Positions 17,469 through 23,054 of a stretch of DNA of 64,000 bases are shown piece by piece; position 1 is the stretch's first letter, and every line of letters begins with the position of its first letter. Origin of the DNA: Sporichthya polymorpha DSM 43042. Lineage in GTDB: Bacteria > Actinomycetota > Actinomycetes > Sporichthyales > Sporichthyaceae. Below the pieces are notes generated by a model that was not told where the DNA came from, ran no database searches, and was given only the letters and a program-made list of their open reading frames with translations. The stretch is taken from assembly GCF_000384115.1 (NCBI RefSeq), contig NZ_KB913029.1:592907-656906 (forward strand). Reading direction: 5' to 3'. The translations under genes were made by a program, and so were the position numbers.

Positions 17469-18630
17469 TCAGGCGCTCTGGTCGAGGGTGACGGTGTGGC
17501 CGAGGCGTTCGAGCTGCGCCACCAGCCGGCGGATGCGGATCTCGGGGTCGATCGGGCGGGTGAAAGTAGTCCGCGCCGAGATCGCGGTAGGGCTCGTCGC
17601 GTTCGAGCATGTAGTAGGCCGCCACGAGCATCGAGTGCGCGACGGCGACGATCGCGCGTTTGGCGCCGCGGCGTGGAGCGAGGTGGCGGTATTGGGCGCC
17701 GAGGTAGTTCGTCTTCATCCGCGACGCTGAGCCGGCGGCCTCGACCAGCGCCGAGGCCAGCCACTTGTTGCCCTTGCGGGAGCCCATCGACCAGGCCTTG
17801 CCGGCGGACTCGTGCACCGACGGGGCGGGCCCGGCCCAGGCGGCCAGGTGCGCCGCCGAGGGGAAGCGGGACATGTCCGCACCGGTCTCAGCGATGATCA
17901 CCTCGGCGGTCTTGACCCCGATCCCGGGCATGGTCTGCAACAGCTCGAACTGGTGGCGCCACGGGGCGATCTCGTCGAGGATCTGCGCGTCGCAGGCCTT
18001 CAGCGACGCCTCGACCTGGGCCAGTCGCTGCAGCATCCCGCCGACGAGCAGGGCGTGGTGATCATCGAAGCGCCCGAGCAGGGACTCGGCCAGCTCGCTC
18101 TTGCGGTTGCGCAGCTTGGAATAGGCCAGATCCGCCATCACGTCGGGGTCGCGTTCCCCGGCCACCAGCGCGGTCAGCATCGCCCGCGCCGAGGAACCGG
18201 CGATGTTCGACACCACCGCGCGGAGAGCTTGATCGAGGCGTCCTCGAGCAGCTTCTCCACCCGGGTGACCTCACGGGTCCGATCACCCATCAGCTGGACC
18301 CGATACCGAGTGAGGTTGCGCAGCCGGCGGATCTCTGGCGGCGGCACGAACGAGGGCGTGACCAGGCCGTGCTCGACCAGCCGGGCGATCCATTCGGCGT
18401 CGCGGACGTCGGACTTACGCCCCGGGACGGCCTTGATGTGGGCGGCGTTGAGCAGCCAGGTCTCCATCACCTCCTCCAGGCAATAGAACGGCGGCTTCCA
18501 ATAGGTCGCGGTCGATTCCATCGCAGCCAGCTCGACCCCGCTCTCGACCAGCCACGCCGCCATGGCCTGAATCTGGCGCGTCATCGTGGAGTAGGTGCGC
18601 ACCTCGTTCGTGCGCGAGCGCCCTGAGATG
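17469..18630 (-). pseudogene. IS110-family transposase, decayed
   Basis: Pieces in three frames together make a nearly complete IS110 transposase. The first (18630 to about 18220) runs EVRTYSTMTRQIQAMAAWLV to KLLEDASIKLSA. A frameshift near 18220 moves to VVSNIAGSSARAMLTALVAG through ESAGKAWSMGSRKGNKW. A second frameshift near 17564 (DYF) is needed to read TRPIDPEIRIRRLVAQLERL up to a TGA at 17469. The N-terminal Asp block (GIDVHK in relatives) is missing. The DEDD-type Glu (AMESTATYW) and Asp (GRKSDVRDAEW) blocks and the C-terminal Ser region remain. It belongs to a different IS110 subgroup from the intact copy at 42581. It is inactive. Confidence 0.88.
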
Positions 18631-18639
18631 GACACAGAC

Positions 18640-19008
18640 CCACGTGCTCTACGGCAACAATCCGACGCTCCCGGAGACCCCGCGCCAGACTCGCTCTACG
18701 AGCTCGAATCGCAGCATCAGAGTGATAGCGACGTCGCCGGGCGACACCCCACCAGGATCCGCCCATCAGCACGGACCTCCCCGAACCGCCCCGGATCCCG
18801 GCGGACCACACAGGATCCTGACGGACAGTCAGACCGAATCCTGAGGACCGCCACCACCCACGCAGCCGCAAGCCGACCACACATTCTCAAGCCCCGACAC
18901 GGCGCCATCGAAGATCGCCACGCGTACTCATCTGGCACCAACGGTGATCGGCGTCGATCTCGGGGCCCGGAGCGCGCACATGTACGGCATGGGCGAGGTT
19001 CGGACGGG
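18640..19008. other. 369-bp gap between IS110 relic and relaxase
   Basis: I see no gene with convincing codon use, no RNA and no strong hairpin. A relaxase origin of transfer (oriT) would be expected near here, but no inverted repeat that I would call a nic region is visible. Confidence 0.4.
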
Positions 19009-21234
19009 ATGGCGGCGCAGCGCGTGATGTCGCTGTCGCGCCTGTCCGCGGGGGCCGGCTACAAGTACCTGCTTCGTCACACCGCCTGCGGCGACGCCTG
19101 CCGCGAAGCCGGATCTCCGCTGACTGGGTACTACGCAGCGTCCGGCTACCCGGTCGGGCGCTGGCACGGCCGCGGCTTGGTGGGGCTGGACGCCGGACGC
19201 GGGCTCGCGGCGGGAACTGCAGTCGCCGAAGAGGCGATGGCCGCGCTGTTCGGCACCGGCCACGACCCGGTCAACGGCGAAGCGCTCGGCCGTCCCTACC
19301 CGGCCTACCGCAACGTGGAAGGCCGGATTGCCGAAGCGCTTGCCGAACTCCCCGAATGCCTCAACACCGACGAACGGAACGCCCGGACCGCCGAGATCGA
19401 GACGACCGAGCGGGCCCGGCCGGTACGCACCGCCGTCGCCGGGTTCGACCTGACCTTCACGGTCCCCAAGTCCGCGAGCGTCCTGTGGGCTCTCGGCCAT
19501 CAGGATGTGCAGACCGCGGTGATGGAGGCGCACCGAGAGGCCGTGACCACCGTGCTCGATCTGATCGAAGAGCGCTTCCTGCACACCCGCGTGGGCCACG
19601 GCGGCTGCGCACAGGTCGGAACGCGCGGCATGATCGCGGCCGCATTTGACCACTGGGACACACGTACGGGCGATCCGAATCTGCACACCCACGTCGTCAT
19701 CGCCAACAAAGTCCAGGGCGCGGACGGCAAGTGGCGATCCGTGGACTCTCGCGCGCTGCATCACGCCGCCGTCGCACTGTCCGAGGTTTACGACGACCTG
19801 ATCGCCGATGCGATCTCGGCCCGCCTGCCGGTGGCGTGGTCCTGGCGCGACCGGGGCGAACGCCGCTCGCCCGCGTTCGAGATCGCCGGCCTACCGGACG
19901 AGCTGCTCGCCGTGTTCTCGACCCGTTCCGGGCAGATCGCCGCAGCCATGCAGCACCTGATCGCCGACTTCCGAATGCGCCACGACCGGGATCCCAACCG
20001 TCGCGAGATCCTGCGACTCCGCCAGCAAGCCACGCTGGCCACCCGACCGGACAAGACGGTGAGACCGCTCGGCGAACTCATCGGACGCTGGCGGACCACC
20101 GCGACCGACCTCACCAAGCGGACTCCTGAGCAGATCGTCGCCGCCGCCTTGCAAGTCCACCCGCATGCTCCGGCACCGGCCGTCGACGCACTTGCGCAGT
20201 TCGCCCTGGCCGCGGTCGTTGAGCGACGCTCGACGTGGACGCGCGCGAACCTGCTCGCGGAGGCCGCCCGGGCTTCCCGCCAGGTGCGCACGCCCGACCC
20301 GGCCGCGCGCGTCGCGCTGCTCGATCGGATCGTGGAGGCAGCCGTCGGGAAATGCGTCGCGCTCGATCCACCCGAGCTGTTCGACGTCCCCCACCGCTTC
20401 CGGCGGCCGGACGGCTCCAGCCTCTTCGCCCGCCCGGCCGAGCACGCGTACACGGCGATCGCCGTACTGGAAGCCGAAGACCGCCTCGTGGCCGCCACCG
20501 ACACCCTGGAGGCTCCGGCGGTCCACGCTGACGCGCTGACGCCGGTGCTCACCGCCGCCGCGCTCGGCATGCCGGGCGCGCGCGGTCTGACCGCCGATCA
20601 GGCCGGCGCCGTCGCGGCGATCGCGAGCTCGGGGCGCCTCCTGGACGTTCTCGTCGGCCCGGCCGGATCGGGCAAGACGCGCGCTCTGCGCGCGCTGCGG
20701 TCGGCGTGGGAGAACGTGCACGGACCGGGCAGCGTCCTGTGGGCCCTCGTCCGCACCATCCTCGAGTACTTCGATCCGACTCTGGCATACACGACCCAAG
20801 TCACGTGGAAGGACGGTGCGGGGTACCTCAACGTTCTGTACAAGACCCTGCCCCGCACCGAGCACTCGCAGGTTCAGTTCGCCTTGGTGTACGACGGCGA
20901 TCAGCGTCCGTCGTCCACCCCCGCGGAGGACCCAAACAGGCAGAACTGGCCGAAGCTCTATCTGCCCGGCGCGGTGAGCCCGGACGCACTCTTGCGAACC
21001 ACACGGACGAAACCGGATGCACCCGCCGCCGCACTCGGAAGCGACCCCACGACGCTGAAGGTCGCTCTCAGTGCTCTCGAGGGCATCGATGACCATGATT
21101 GGGTGGACCGTCTTTGTGCCCAGTACGGGCCGCGCGCAGGCTCCCTTCGTGCGTTGTGTCGACTGTGGGTGCAGCAAAACGAGTCCGCGGCATTCGCCTT
21201 CTACCAAGATGTCCGCGGGGCCAGCCCTACGTAA
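19009..21234 (+). CDS. MobF/TraA-type relaxase with truncated helicase and foreign C terminus (741 aa)
   Basis: Residues 1 to about 310 are a TrwC/MobF relaxase. MSLSRLSAGAGYKYLLRHTA carries candidate nucleophilic Tyr, TVPKSASVLWALG is the typical core, and HWDTRTGDPNLHTHVVIAN at about 214-232 gives the three-His metal site. A RecD-like helicase then begins, with Walker A VGPAGSGKTRALRAL near residue 550. About 20 residues later, after HGPGSV (nt about 20737), the sequence stops matching a helicase and becomes an unrelated tail of about 165 residues (WALVRTILEYFDPTLAY onwards, containing FALVYDGDQ). Walker B and later helicase motifs are absent. Conjugative relaxases are normally 1000 residues or more. 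ATG 19009 chosen; GTG 19024 or ATG 19027 are alternatives. Confidence 0.82.
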   Translation: MAAQRVMSLSRLSAGAGYKYLLRHTACGDACREAGSPLTGYYAASGYPVGRWHGRGLVGLDAGRGLAAGTAVAEEAMAALFGTGHDPVNGEALGRPYPAYRNVEGRIAEALAELPECLNTDERNARTAEIETTERARPVRTAVAGFDLTFTVPKSASVLWALGHQDVQTAVMEAHREAVTTVLDLIEERFLHTRVGHGGCAQVGTRGMIAAAFDHWDTRTGDPNLHTHVVIANKVQGADGKWRSVDSRALHHAAVALSEVYDDLIADAISARLPVAWSWRDRGERRSPAFEIAGLPDELLAVFSTRSGQIAAAMQHLIADFRMRHDRDPNRREILRLRQQATLATRPDKTVRPLGELIGRWRTTATDLTKRTPEQIVAAALQVHPHAPAPAVDALAQFALAAVVERRSTWTRANLLAEAARASRQVRTPDPAARVALLDRIVEAAVGKCVALDPPELFDVPHRFRRPDGSSLFARPAEHAYTAIAVLEAEDRLVAATDTLEAPAVHADALTPVLTAAALGMPGARGLTADQAGAVAAIASSGRLLDVLVGPAGSGKTRALRALRSAWENVHGPGSVLWALVRTILEYFDPTLAYTTQVTWKDGAGYLNVLYKTLPRTEHSQVQFALVYDGDQRPSSTPAEDPNRQNWPKLYLPGAVSPDALLRTTRTKPDAPAAALGSDPTTLKVALSALEGIDDHDWVDRLCAQYGPRAGSLRALCRLWVQQNESAAFAFYQDVRGASPT

Positions 21235-21536: not shown

Positions 21537-21582
21537 GGTGGAGCTGAGGGGATTTGAACCCCTGGCCCCCTCGTTGCGAACG
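21537..21582. repeat. attR: 46-bp direct repeat inside tRNA-Ala
   Basis: Identical to 13087-13132 and covering the 3' half of the intact tRNA-Ala from the anticodon loop to just past the discriminator base. The tRNA 5' half continues only on this side, so this is the end that keeps the tRNA functional. Confidence 0.92.
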
Positions 21583-21612
21583 AGGTGCGCTACCGGACTG
21601 CGCCACAGCCCC
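21539..21612 (-). tRNA. tRNA-Ala, anticodon CGC
   Basis: On the minus strand the acceptor GGGGCTG (21612-21606) pairs with CAGCTCC (21546-21540), with A as discriminator. The G3-U70 wobble that specifies alanine is present. The anticodon stem-loop reads CTCGT-TCGCAAC-GAG with CGC as anticodon, and the T-arm contains GGTTCAAATCC. Length is 74 with no encoded CCA. It is the integration target of the element on its downstream side. Confidence 0.95.
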
Positions 21613-22057
21613 CGAAGTGCGGAGAAAGATTATCACTGGCCCCCGGGTGGTCGACGCGGGCCGGACCCCGGGGCGCGGGGCTCATCTTCTCCGGCGCGGC
21701 GCGCCTATCCCGGGGCCGCGATAGGCGCGCCAGGCCGCAGAAGTTGCGGCGCGGCCTCATCTTCTTCGGCGCGGGGCGCCTATCCGGGGGCCGGGATAGG
21801 CGCGCCAGGTAGGAGAAGTTGCGAACCCGACCGGGCAACCCAGGCCGGCCGGACCGCCGGGGGCGGGCCTCATCTTCTCCTGCGCGGGGCGCCTATCCGA
21901 CCCGGTAGATAGGCGCGCCAGGCAGGAGAGTCGAGGCGGGTGCTCGTCTTCTGCGGCGCGGGGCGCCTATCCCGGGGCCGGGATGGGCGCGCCAGGCTGG
22001 AGAAGTTGCGAACAAGGCGGCCCGGCGAACCACGCGGCCGGGCGGGCGAGGCGGGAA
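21613..22057. other. 445-bp non-coding spacer filled by the hairpin repeats
   Basis: Between the tRNA-Ala 5' end and the stop of the SepX/GLPR gene there is no protein gene. The spacer consists mainly of the four hairpin units described separately, with GC-rich linkers. Confidence 0.75.
21683..22010. repeat. Four tandem copies of a 66-bp hairpin unit
   Basis: Units lie at 21683-21748, 21758-21823, 21871-21935 and 21945-22010. Each has the plan CTTCT, variable GC-rich bases, GGCGCCTATC, a 10-base loop, GATAGGCGCGCC, variable bases, AGAAG. The inner stem is 11-13 bp in every copy; copy 4 has GGATGGG, a wobble-compatible change. The outer arms vary, and in copy 3 (TCTCCTGC with GCAGGAGA) the variation stays paired. 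The copies form two pairs (start-to-start 75 and 74 bp) repeated at a 188-bp period. All point the same way, in the spacer upstream of tRNA-Ala and downstream of the SepX/GLPR gene. REP-like element, processing or terminator array, or structured RNA are the options. Confidence 0.85.
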
Positions 22058-22936
22058 TTACTCCCCGACGGCGCGGGGGATCTCGATCTCGTCCTCGTCC
22101 AGACCGGCGACCTCAGCGGCGGGGGCGGGGGCCTCAGCCGGGGCGGCGGCCTGCTCGGCCATCTCCGCCTCGATCTCGGCGATCAGCTCGTCGGTGAGGG
22201 CGGGGAACTCCTGAGTGGCCTCGTCGTCCTCGTCGGCGACGGCCCAGGGACGGCCGGCGGAGACGTCGATCCGGCGGGCGACGCGGGGCGCCTTGGGGGC
22301 GGTGACGTACGTCGGGAGCGGGACGGGGCGGGGCTCCCAGCCGTCGGCGATATCGGCGACGGGGCCGGGCTTGGTCTCCTCGACCTCGACCGAGGGCCAG
22401 GGGTCCCACGTCAGGTCCGAGTCGGCGGGCCGGCTCCGGGTGCCGCGCTGCGCGGGGATGCGGGCCGGGCCGGCGGGGGCGGCGACGGGCGGGACGGCCA
22501 CGCGGGTCACGCGGGCCTTCTTCGCCCGCACCCGCACCTCGTAGAGGTACGCGACGAACAGGGCGGCGGGGATCGCGGCCGGCCACAGCGGCAGCAGGCC
22601 GAGCAGGTTCGCGGTCAGCAGCGGGACGAACACGGAGACGAGCGTGCCGAGGACCCGACGACGCCGGCGCGCGGTCGCGGCGCTGACGCGCGGCCGGGTG
22701 ACGACCTCGACGGGACGGACGCCGGACTTCACGACCGGCTCGGCCGCGGGTGGGACGGCCGGGCGCAGCATCGAGTAGGTACCAGCGGCCGGGTCCGGCT
22801 CGCCGCGGCGTCGCAGCACAGTCCCCTCCGGAACTCCGCAGTCGATGTCGGTCGGCGTCACTTTCAGACACCGCGTCAGAAGAAACACGGCCCAGGCGCC
22901 GAGCACCGCTGCGTAGAGAAGGCCGCTTCCGCTCAT
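22058..22936 (-). CDS. sepX: SepX/GLPR-type divisome membrane protein (292 aa)
   Basis: The N-terminal membrane helix is residues 5-20 (LLYAAVLGAWAVFLL), a second hydrophobic hairpin lies near 95-135, and a long acidic, Pro/Ala-rich cytoplasmic tail is rich in DEDDEATQEF and DEDEIEIP. This layout and the position next to rimJ, mog, moaC and moeA match SepX of Streptomyces and GLPR of corynebacteria. These are division proteins that work with FtsZ and, in corynebacteria, with the MoeA-like protein Glp. Sequence conservation outside the helices is low, so the call rests on topology plus synteny. Start ATG 22936 (MSGSGLLYA) preferred over 22945. The hairpin-repeat array lies directly downstream. 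Confidence 0.7.
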   Translation of the reverse strand: MSGSGLLYAAVLGAWAVFLLTRCLKVTPTDIDCGVPEGTVLRRRGEPDPAAGTYSMLRPAVPPAAEPVVKSGVRPVEVVTRPRVSAATARRRRRVLGTLVSVFVPLLTANLLGLLPLWPAAIPAALFVAYLYEVRVRAKKARVTRVAVPPVAAPAGPARIPAQRGTRSRPADSDLTWDPWPSVEVEETKPGPVADIADGWEPRPVPLPTYVTAPKAPRVARRIDVSAGRPWAVADEDDEATQEFPALTDELIAEIEAEMAEQAAAPAEAPAPAAEVAGLDEDEIEIPRAVGE

Positions 22937-23054
22937 GACCCCCAAAGTTAGGGCCGCAAAGGGCTGCGATCCGGGAAGCTCGCCGCGTGTCGCGCGGGAC
23001 AGATGTGACTAGAGAGGTTTCGGGCCTGACGGAACGTCCGAAAACCGGACCTAT

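What the first reader, a model, noticed from the sequence alone, without database searches (positions are those of the whole stretch)
21683..22010. Array of four 66-bp hairpin repeats between tRNA-Ala and the SepX/GLPR gene
Four copies share an 11-13-bp inner stem around a 10-base loop and a CTTCT/AGAAG outer stem. Copies are arranged as two pairs with 75/74-bp spacing inside a 188-bp period. Variation in the outer arm of copy 3 and the inner stem of copy 4 preserves pairing. This is more than terminator redundancy and fits either a REP/BIME-like mobile repeat or a structured RNA.
Basis: seen in the sequence. Interest (0 to 1): 0.7.

Follow-up and report, generated by a model that had tools for sequence, protein, structure and literature searches.

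The report
Dispersed hairpin repeats after stop codons
The four hairpins are one cluster of a 64-bp palindromic repeat that is scattered at about 26 places in this actinobacterial genome, nearly always just after genes end; it looks like a mobile element that carries a ready-made transcription terminator, and it has spread without the transposase that usually moves such repeats.

Summary
Four 63-64-bp palindromes (21683-22008) sit between SepX and tRNA-Ala. They belong to a genome-wide family: at least 41 copies at about 26 sites in the 5.5-Mb genome, also in the congeners G001 and G002 and at least 75 copies in G004 (sister genus), with essentially none outside the family (Sporichthyaceae). 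Copies lie a median 14-16 bp after stop codons, between convergent or tandem genes and almost never between divergent ones. Against a 93-95% identical congener the family varies: four copies versus one at this site, tandem units gained or lost, and a clean 64-bp presence/absence without target duplication. Pairing does not covary within this genome, but across the family 22 of 28 stem pairs change on both sides. No RAYT or other Y1 transposase was found in the five family genomes, and no insertion sequence shares the ends, so it is REP-like but fails the tested marks of RAYT-REPs. At the same SepX/tRNA-Ala slot a congener carries a different dispersed palindrome. Most likely: a non-autonomous dispersing hairpin, mobilised by an unknown activity, that works as a bidirectional terminator (function inferred). 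New variant of a known kind.

The parts
21683..21746 (+). palindromic repeat, copy 1 (64 bp)
   Evidence: 81.3 bits, E 3e-16
21758..21821 (+). palindromic repeat, copy 2 (64 bp)
   Evidence: 79.6 bits
21871..21933 (+). palindromic repeat, copy 3 (63 bp; 1-bp deletion in the outer 3' arm)
   Evidence: (61.2 bits)
21945..22008 (+). palindromic repeat, copy 4 (64 bp)
   Evidence: 80 bits
21656..21826 (.). first half of a duplicated two-copy block (84% identical to 21844-22013, offset 188)
21844..22013 (.). second half of the duplicated two-copy block
22058..22945 (-). SepX/GlpR-like gene whose 3' end faces the array (49 bp from its stop to copy 4)
   Evidence: NCBIfam SepX_GlpR_2 E 1.2e-27 but 97.5 bits is below the curated cut-off of 150
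21537..21612 (-). tRNA-Ala (CGC), next gene downstream of the array; its junction with SepX is conserved in G001, G002 and G004

Best explanation
It is a family of short dispersed palindromic elements of Sporichthyaceae. SHOWN: the unit is a 64-bp inverted repeat with a sequence-conserved foot (CAWCTTCT/AGAAGWTG) and tip (YATC/GATR) and a middle stem that differs between lineages while staying paired. It is present in tens of copies per genome, nearly always just 3' of stop codons. Its presence and tandem copy number differ between congeners. INFERRED: (1) New copies are inserted as whole units without target duplication by an unidentified activity that is not a RAYT. (2) Insertions survive mainly behind genes, where the transcribed hairpin acts from both sides as a U-tract-less terminator or 3'-end barrier for the flanking genes, here SepX. 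(3) Neighbouring copies are multiplied or lost by recombination or slippage between units (75-bp step; here also a 188-bp block duplication).
For: Genome-wide family: 41 copies at about 26 sites; lineage range. Placement: G000 13 convergent, 10 tandem, 0 divergent, stop-side median 14 bp; G004 28/32/4, median 16 bp; divergent depletion p=2e-4 and 1e-8 against intergenic base shares. Variation against G002: 4 v 1 copies at this site and at 4018999, 2 v 1 at 4642975 and 4645351, the last being a fusion of the two arms; empty sites at 2293393, 2992353 and others, the 2992353 insert being exactly 64 bp with no target duplication. Five of the G000-only sites lack the element in the outgroup G001 as well, which points to gains. 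Pairing kept across the family: 22 of 28 pairs change on both sides, covariation 0.456 v 0.162 shuffled; within G004 subfamily II 0.321 v 0.106. Orthologous 3' ends in G001 often carry other long hairpins.
Against: No covariation among the 25 copies of this genome. No U-tract and no canonical terminator call at the array. No mobilising enzyme identified. Gain and loss cannot be told apart at some sites: 3725734 has an element in G001 and a possible 13-nt remnant in G002. Some copies lie inside coding sequence (fliK, a CaiB-type gene) and four near divergent genes in G004, so a terminator role is not universal. No RNA data.
Confidence: 0.6

Rival explanations
1. Ordinary REP/BIME elements dispersed by a RAYT (IS200/IS605-type TnpA-REP), as in enterobacteria and pseudomonads.
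For: Palindromic, extragenic, 3' of genes, clustered, lineage-specific, without target duplication.
Against: No Y1_Tnp in G000-G004 while the same search finds it in 5 of 14 control genomes; no GTAG foot; 64 bp; same orientation within the array; no isolated half-element pair flanking a gene.
Confidence: 0.07
2. Not mobile: vertically inherited terminators at conserved 3' slots whose sequences are homogenised within each genome (concerted evolution or gene conversion), so that one lineage carries palindrome A and another palindrome B at the same slots.
For: G001 has family B (about 19 sites) at three sites where G000 has A with both flanks matching (SepX, 2284513, 4077333) and two more with one flank. 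Arms A and B share length, tip motif and 15-16 of 26 bases. Sites shared by G000 and G002 are those with B (5 of 7 v 0 of 5, p=0.03; small sample, and not significant if the two one-flank cases are left out).
Against: G000-only sites empty in both G002 and G001 need real gains; a clean 64-bp insertion at 2992353. Three strict coincidences could also reflect shared insertion hot spots.
Confidence: 0.2
3. MITE, i.e. the deletion derivative of an insertion sequence with matching terminal inverted repeats.
For: Near-perfect inverted repeat and presence/absence polymorphism.
Against: All 59 exact half-element matches in the genome lie in or next to known copies; none flanks a transposase. No target duplication at two junctions read closely.
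Confidence: 0.07
4. Binding site for a nucleoid, gyrase or other DNA-binding protein; the palindrome is read as double-stranded DNA.
For: In G000 the arms are conserved as sequence rather than by covariation; dyad tip YATC-N8-10-GATR and foot conserved; about 75-bp phasing in arrays.
Against: The middle stem changes on both sides across genera and within G004-II, which DNA recognition alone does not require; placement almost only 3' of genes.
Confidence: 0.06

Closest known systems
REP/BIME (GTAG REPs with RAYTs; PMC2817692, PMC3733652)
   Same: Dispersed palindromes, extragenic, 3' of genes in convergent/tandem position, in clusters, lineage-specific, some copies inside genes
   Different: No RAYT found, no GTAG foot, 64 v 20-40 bp, tens rather than hundreds of copies, same-orientation arrays, an actinobacterial family
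CGTC-tagged REPs (PMC3733652)
   Same: REP-like families with no dedicated transposase known
   Different: Only about 6 of 25 copies begin CGTC; the consensus foot is CAWCTTCT; longer unit
Rickettsia palindromic elements (RPE; recalled, partly in PMC3733652)
   Same: Palindromic repeats that can sit in frame inside proteins (here three in fliK, one in a CaiB-type protein)
   Different: Here nearly all copies are extragenic
Bidirectional intrinsic terminators / 3'-end hairpins of high-GC actinobacteria (recalled)
   Same: Strong GC-rich hairpin just past the stop codon, between convergent genes, no U-tract
   Different: Ordinary terminators are not one repeated sequence family with empty sites in relatives
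DUS dialects of Neisseriaceae (PMC3630211)
   Same: Lineage-specific versions of a repeated motif, often as inverted repeats in terminator position
   Different: DUS are short motifs in the thousands tied to DNA uptake (recalled); here tens of 64-bp units, no link to competence tested

Membership tests
RAYT-associated REP (GTAG REP) | RAYT (Y1/HUH, PF01797) in the genome | tested here: not met
   no match in G000-G004; found in 5 of 14 control genomes
RAYT-associated REP (GTAG REP) | GTAG/GT(A/G)G head at the foot of the palindrome | tested here: not met
   consensus CAWCTTCT...AGAAGWTG
RAYT-associated REP (GTAG REP) | 20-40 bp unit | tested here: not met
   64 bp, collinear in 25 copies
RAYT-associated REP (GTAG REP) | extragenic, mainly 3' of genes | tested here: met
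BIME | units in alternating orientation at regular spacing | tested here: not met
   the four units here score best on the same strand at about 75-bp steps; units are near-symmetric, so orientation is weakly defined
CGTC-tagged REP | CGTC at one end | tested here: not met
   about 6 of 25 copies
MITE | target-site duplication | tested here: inconclusive
   none at the two cleanest junctions; other junctions too diverged to read
MITE | autonomous parent IS with the same ends | tested here: not met
   own genome only
Rho-independent terminator | GC-rich hairpin shortly after the stop codon | tested here: met
Rho-independent terminator | U-tract after the hairpin | tested here: not met
   outward T fraction about 0.09 in G000; no terminator call at the array
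Rho-independent terminator | transcripts end there | not testable with these tools
   no RNA data held
Known structured RNA family | match to an Rfam model | tested here: not met
   only the two tRNAs match at gathering threshold
Rickettsia palindromic element-like | insertion in frame inside protein genes | tested here: met
   three in fliK (Pfam Flg_hook), conserved in G002, and one in a CoA-transferase III protein; a minority of copies

The most novel reading that the evidence does not exclude
Sporichthyaceae keep long-lived 'palindrome slots' behind genes. A self-spreading terminator hairpin occupies them, and its sequence is rewritten in concert across the whole genome in each lineage (A in G000/G002, B in G001, further versions in G003/G004). 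A non-RAYT enzyme that recognises the conserved YATC/GATR hairpin tip or foot would move and replace the units: a new transposition or conversion system whose cargo is nothing but a bidirectional terminator.
Probability: 0.2. Interest if true: 0.8.

Novelty: new variant of a known kind. Interest (0 to 1): 0.55.

Why it matters
Dispersed palindromes are usually explained by RAYTs. This family spreads, varies between close relatives and keeps its pairing across genera with no RAYT found anywhere in the family, so some other mobilising or homogenising activity should exist. Because it lands just behind genes, it also offers a test of whether mobile elements supply, and replace, transcription terminators in actinobacteria. 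Two congeners with different palindromes at the same slot make the question directly testable.

Tried and rejected
RAYT search in own genome and four relatives: none. Half-element pattern to find an IS with the same ends: only known copies. Idea that units insert into the centre of older terminator palindromes: no real flank complementarity; the single striking case, L131, is a contig-end inverted repeat and was discarded as a likely assembly artefact. Covariation inside this genome: none. Plasmid and phage collections: no match. Named-genome pattern scan: only a Sporichthya MAG matched well; the hits in Nocardioides and Candidatus Zipacnadia are weak (25.6 and 23.6 bits) and taken as chance. 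Uptake-sequence reading: rejected, because there are far too few copies. My first gene-finder model called many antisense ORFs and was replaced. Literature: no paper on such a family in Sporichthya was found in the held library.

Full report
What is there. The window lies at 592907-656906 of a single-contig, 5.5-Mb genome. Each folds into one long hairpin. The unit is a 64-bp inverted repeat, CAWCTTCT...YATC-(8-10 nt)-GATR...AGAAGWTG; its 25 best copies are collinear without indels apart from single cases. The 188-bp period is a duplicated two-copy block, 84% identical over 173 nt.

A genome-wide family. A DNA search and a covariance model (R1) find at least 41 copies at about 26 sites. Many are in tandem at about 75 bp: three at 579353, four here, four at 4018999, pairs at 2067361, 2284513, 4642975 and 4645351. 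Two congeners and a sister genus have the family; among 60 relatives from the class, other families give at most single weak hits. That G000 is a Sporichthya follows from the genus assignment; the species is not shown.

Placement. Gene calls were made with a codon model trained on these loci, since no annotation is held. In G000, 13 sites lie between convergent genes, 10 between tandem genes and none between divergent genes; one further site lies inside an ORF in that count. Stop-side distances have a median of 14 bp. In G004 the counts are 28, 32 and 4, median 16 bp. Against the share of intergenic bases, divergent regions are depleted with p=2e-4 (G000) and 1e-8 (G004). The element-free background comes from the same fetched stretches, so it is approximate. 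Exceptions are informative: three copies sit in frame in the linker of fliK, encoding peptides such as DFSGEARPSTASDGRGTQEK, and are conserved in G002; one sits in a CoA-transferase III protein.

Variation between close relatives. G002 is 93-95% identical around most sites. At this site G002 has one copy against four. It also has one against four at 4018999 and one against two at 4642975. At 4645351 the single G002 copy joins the left arm of G000's first unit to the right arm of its second, the signature of recombination or slippage between units. Nine further G000 sites have no element in G002. The cleanest, at 2992353, differs by exactly 64 bp (CCCCGG|64 bp|TGGG) with no target duplication. 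No G002-private site was seen. For five of the G000-only sites G001 also lacks the element, which favours gains in G000. At 3725734 the element is present in G001 and absent in G002, which may keep a 13-nt remnant, so losses occur too.

Is pairing conserved? Within G000, no more than when the 3' letters are shuffled: both arms are simply conserved as sequence. Across G000, G001 and G004, 14 of 28 pairs change on both sides, covariation 0.273 against 0.135 shuffled. Adding G003 gives 22 of 28 and 0.456 against 0.162. Inside G004, subfamily II alone gives 0.321 against 0.106. Sliding the partner by 1-3 columns destroys the signal each time. Relatedness of the copies inflates such counts, so they are not probabilities. 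The inverted repeat is nevertheless maintained while its middle sequence drifts. Selection for a hairpin and copying of one arm onto the other would both do this.

Same slot, different palindrome. The SepX/tRNA-Ala junction is kept in G001, G002 and G004. G001 has no A element there but another 60-bp palindrome (GACTCTGGTCGCGTG...GGGCTATC-loop-GATAGCCC...CCAGAGTC). This is itself a dispersed family in G001, about 19 sites, and absent from G000 and G002, where its model finds only A copies weakly. B occupies A sites at three junctions with both flanks matching (SepX, 2284513, 4077333) and two with one flank matching (4642975, 4645351). With 19 B sites, 26 A sites and about 4000 3' junctions (my assumption), five coincidences have p about 1e-7; the strict three would still be about 3e-4 by my own arithmetic. 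The arms of A and B agree at 15-16 of 26 positions including the tip (p about 0.001), which suggests common descent. Whether A and B replaced each other in place or both favour the same sites is open.

How it most likely works. Shown: dispersal, 3' placement, unit-wise presence/absence, tandem expansion and contraction, and family-wide pairing. Inferred: insertion as a whole unit by an unidentified activity, and function of the transcribed hairpin as a bidirectional terminator or 3'-end barrier. A U-tract is absent; terminators without one are accepted in high-GC actinobacteria (own knowledge, not tested here). Non-repeat long hairpins at several orthologous 3' ends in G001 fit the idea that such junctions need a hairpin and that the repeat supplies one.

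Comparison with known kinds. REP elements behave alike: extragenic, convergent/tandem placement, clusters, sometimes inside genes (PMC3733652, PMC2817692). But the features tested for RAYT-REPs are not met: no Y1 transposase in five genomes, no GTAG head, 64 rather than 20-40 bp, no alternating orientation. CGTC-REPs share the lack of a transposase but not the tag. No parent insertion sequence was found, no plasmid or phage in the collections carries it, and no Rfam family matches. I therefore file it as a new variant of REP-like repeats, not as a REP.

Limits. Gene calls are mine. G001 and G004 are draft assemblies. The search tool scores a limited number of candidates per genome, so copy counts are lower bounds. 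There are no RNA data.

Noticed in passing
window 18595-21234 (+) and 21537-21612 (-): A TrwC-type relaxase ORF (Pfam TrwC 5.8e-85) lies next to tRNA-Ala. G002 homology stops about 30 bp beyond the tRNA (near window 21507), so a conjugative element is probably integrated at the tRNA 3' end in G000 only. The hairpin array is on the other side and not part of it.
   Followed up: partly
L071 2812-4050 (genome 945811-947049): fliK carries three in-frame copies of the palindrome in its linker, conserved in G002; indels between the two genomes there are mostly multiples of three.
   Followed up: partly
L079 2309-4102 (genome 3364608-3366401, minus): One copy in frame inside a CoA-transferase family III protein, kept in G002 without indels.
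   Followed up: partly
G001, e.g. L201-L204, L249-L262: A second dispersed palindrome family (B, ACTCTGG...CCAGAGT, about 19 sites) in the congener, partly at the orthologous slots of family A.
   Followed up: yes
G000 2276151, 3725808, 5123865: Extra single half-elements 30-40 bp after full units in G000; the ones aligned to G002 are absent there. They may be duplications of one arm.
   Followed up: no
L131 (G004:C58:1-1700): Contig C58 begins with a long inverted repeat around a copy, probably an assembly fold-back artefact at the palindrome.
   Followed up: no
G004 flanks of copies (L102-L197): About 15 bp on either side of G004 copies are strongly G-rich reading outward (e.g. GGGGTTGGGG), not so in G000; this could be an extended element end or a target preference.
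   Followed up: partly
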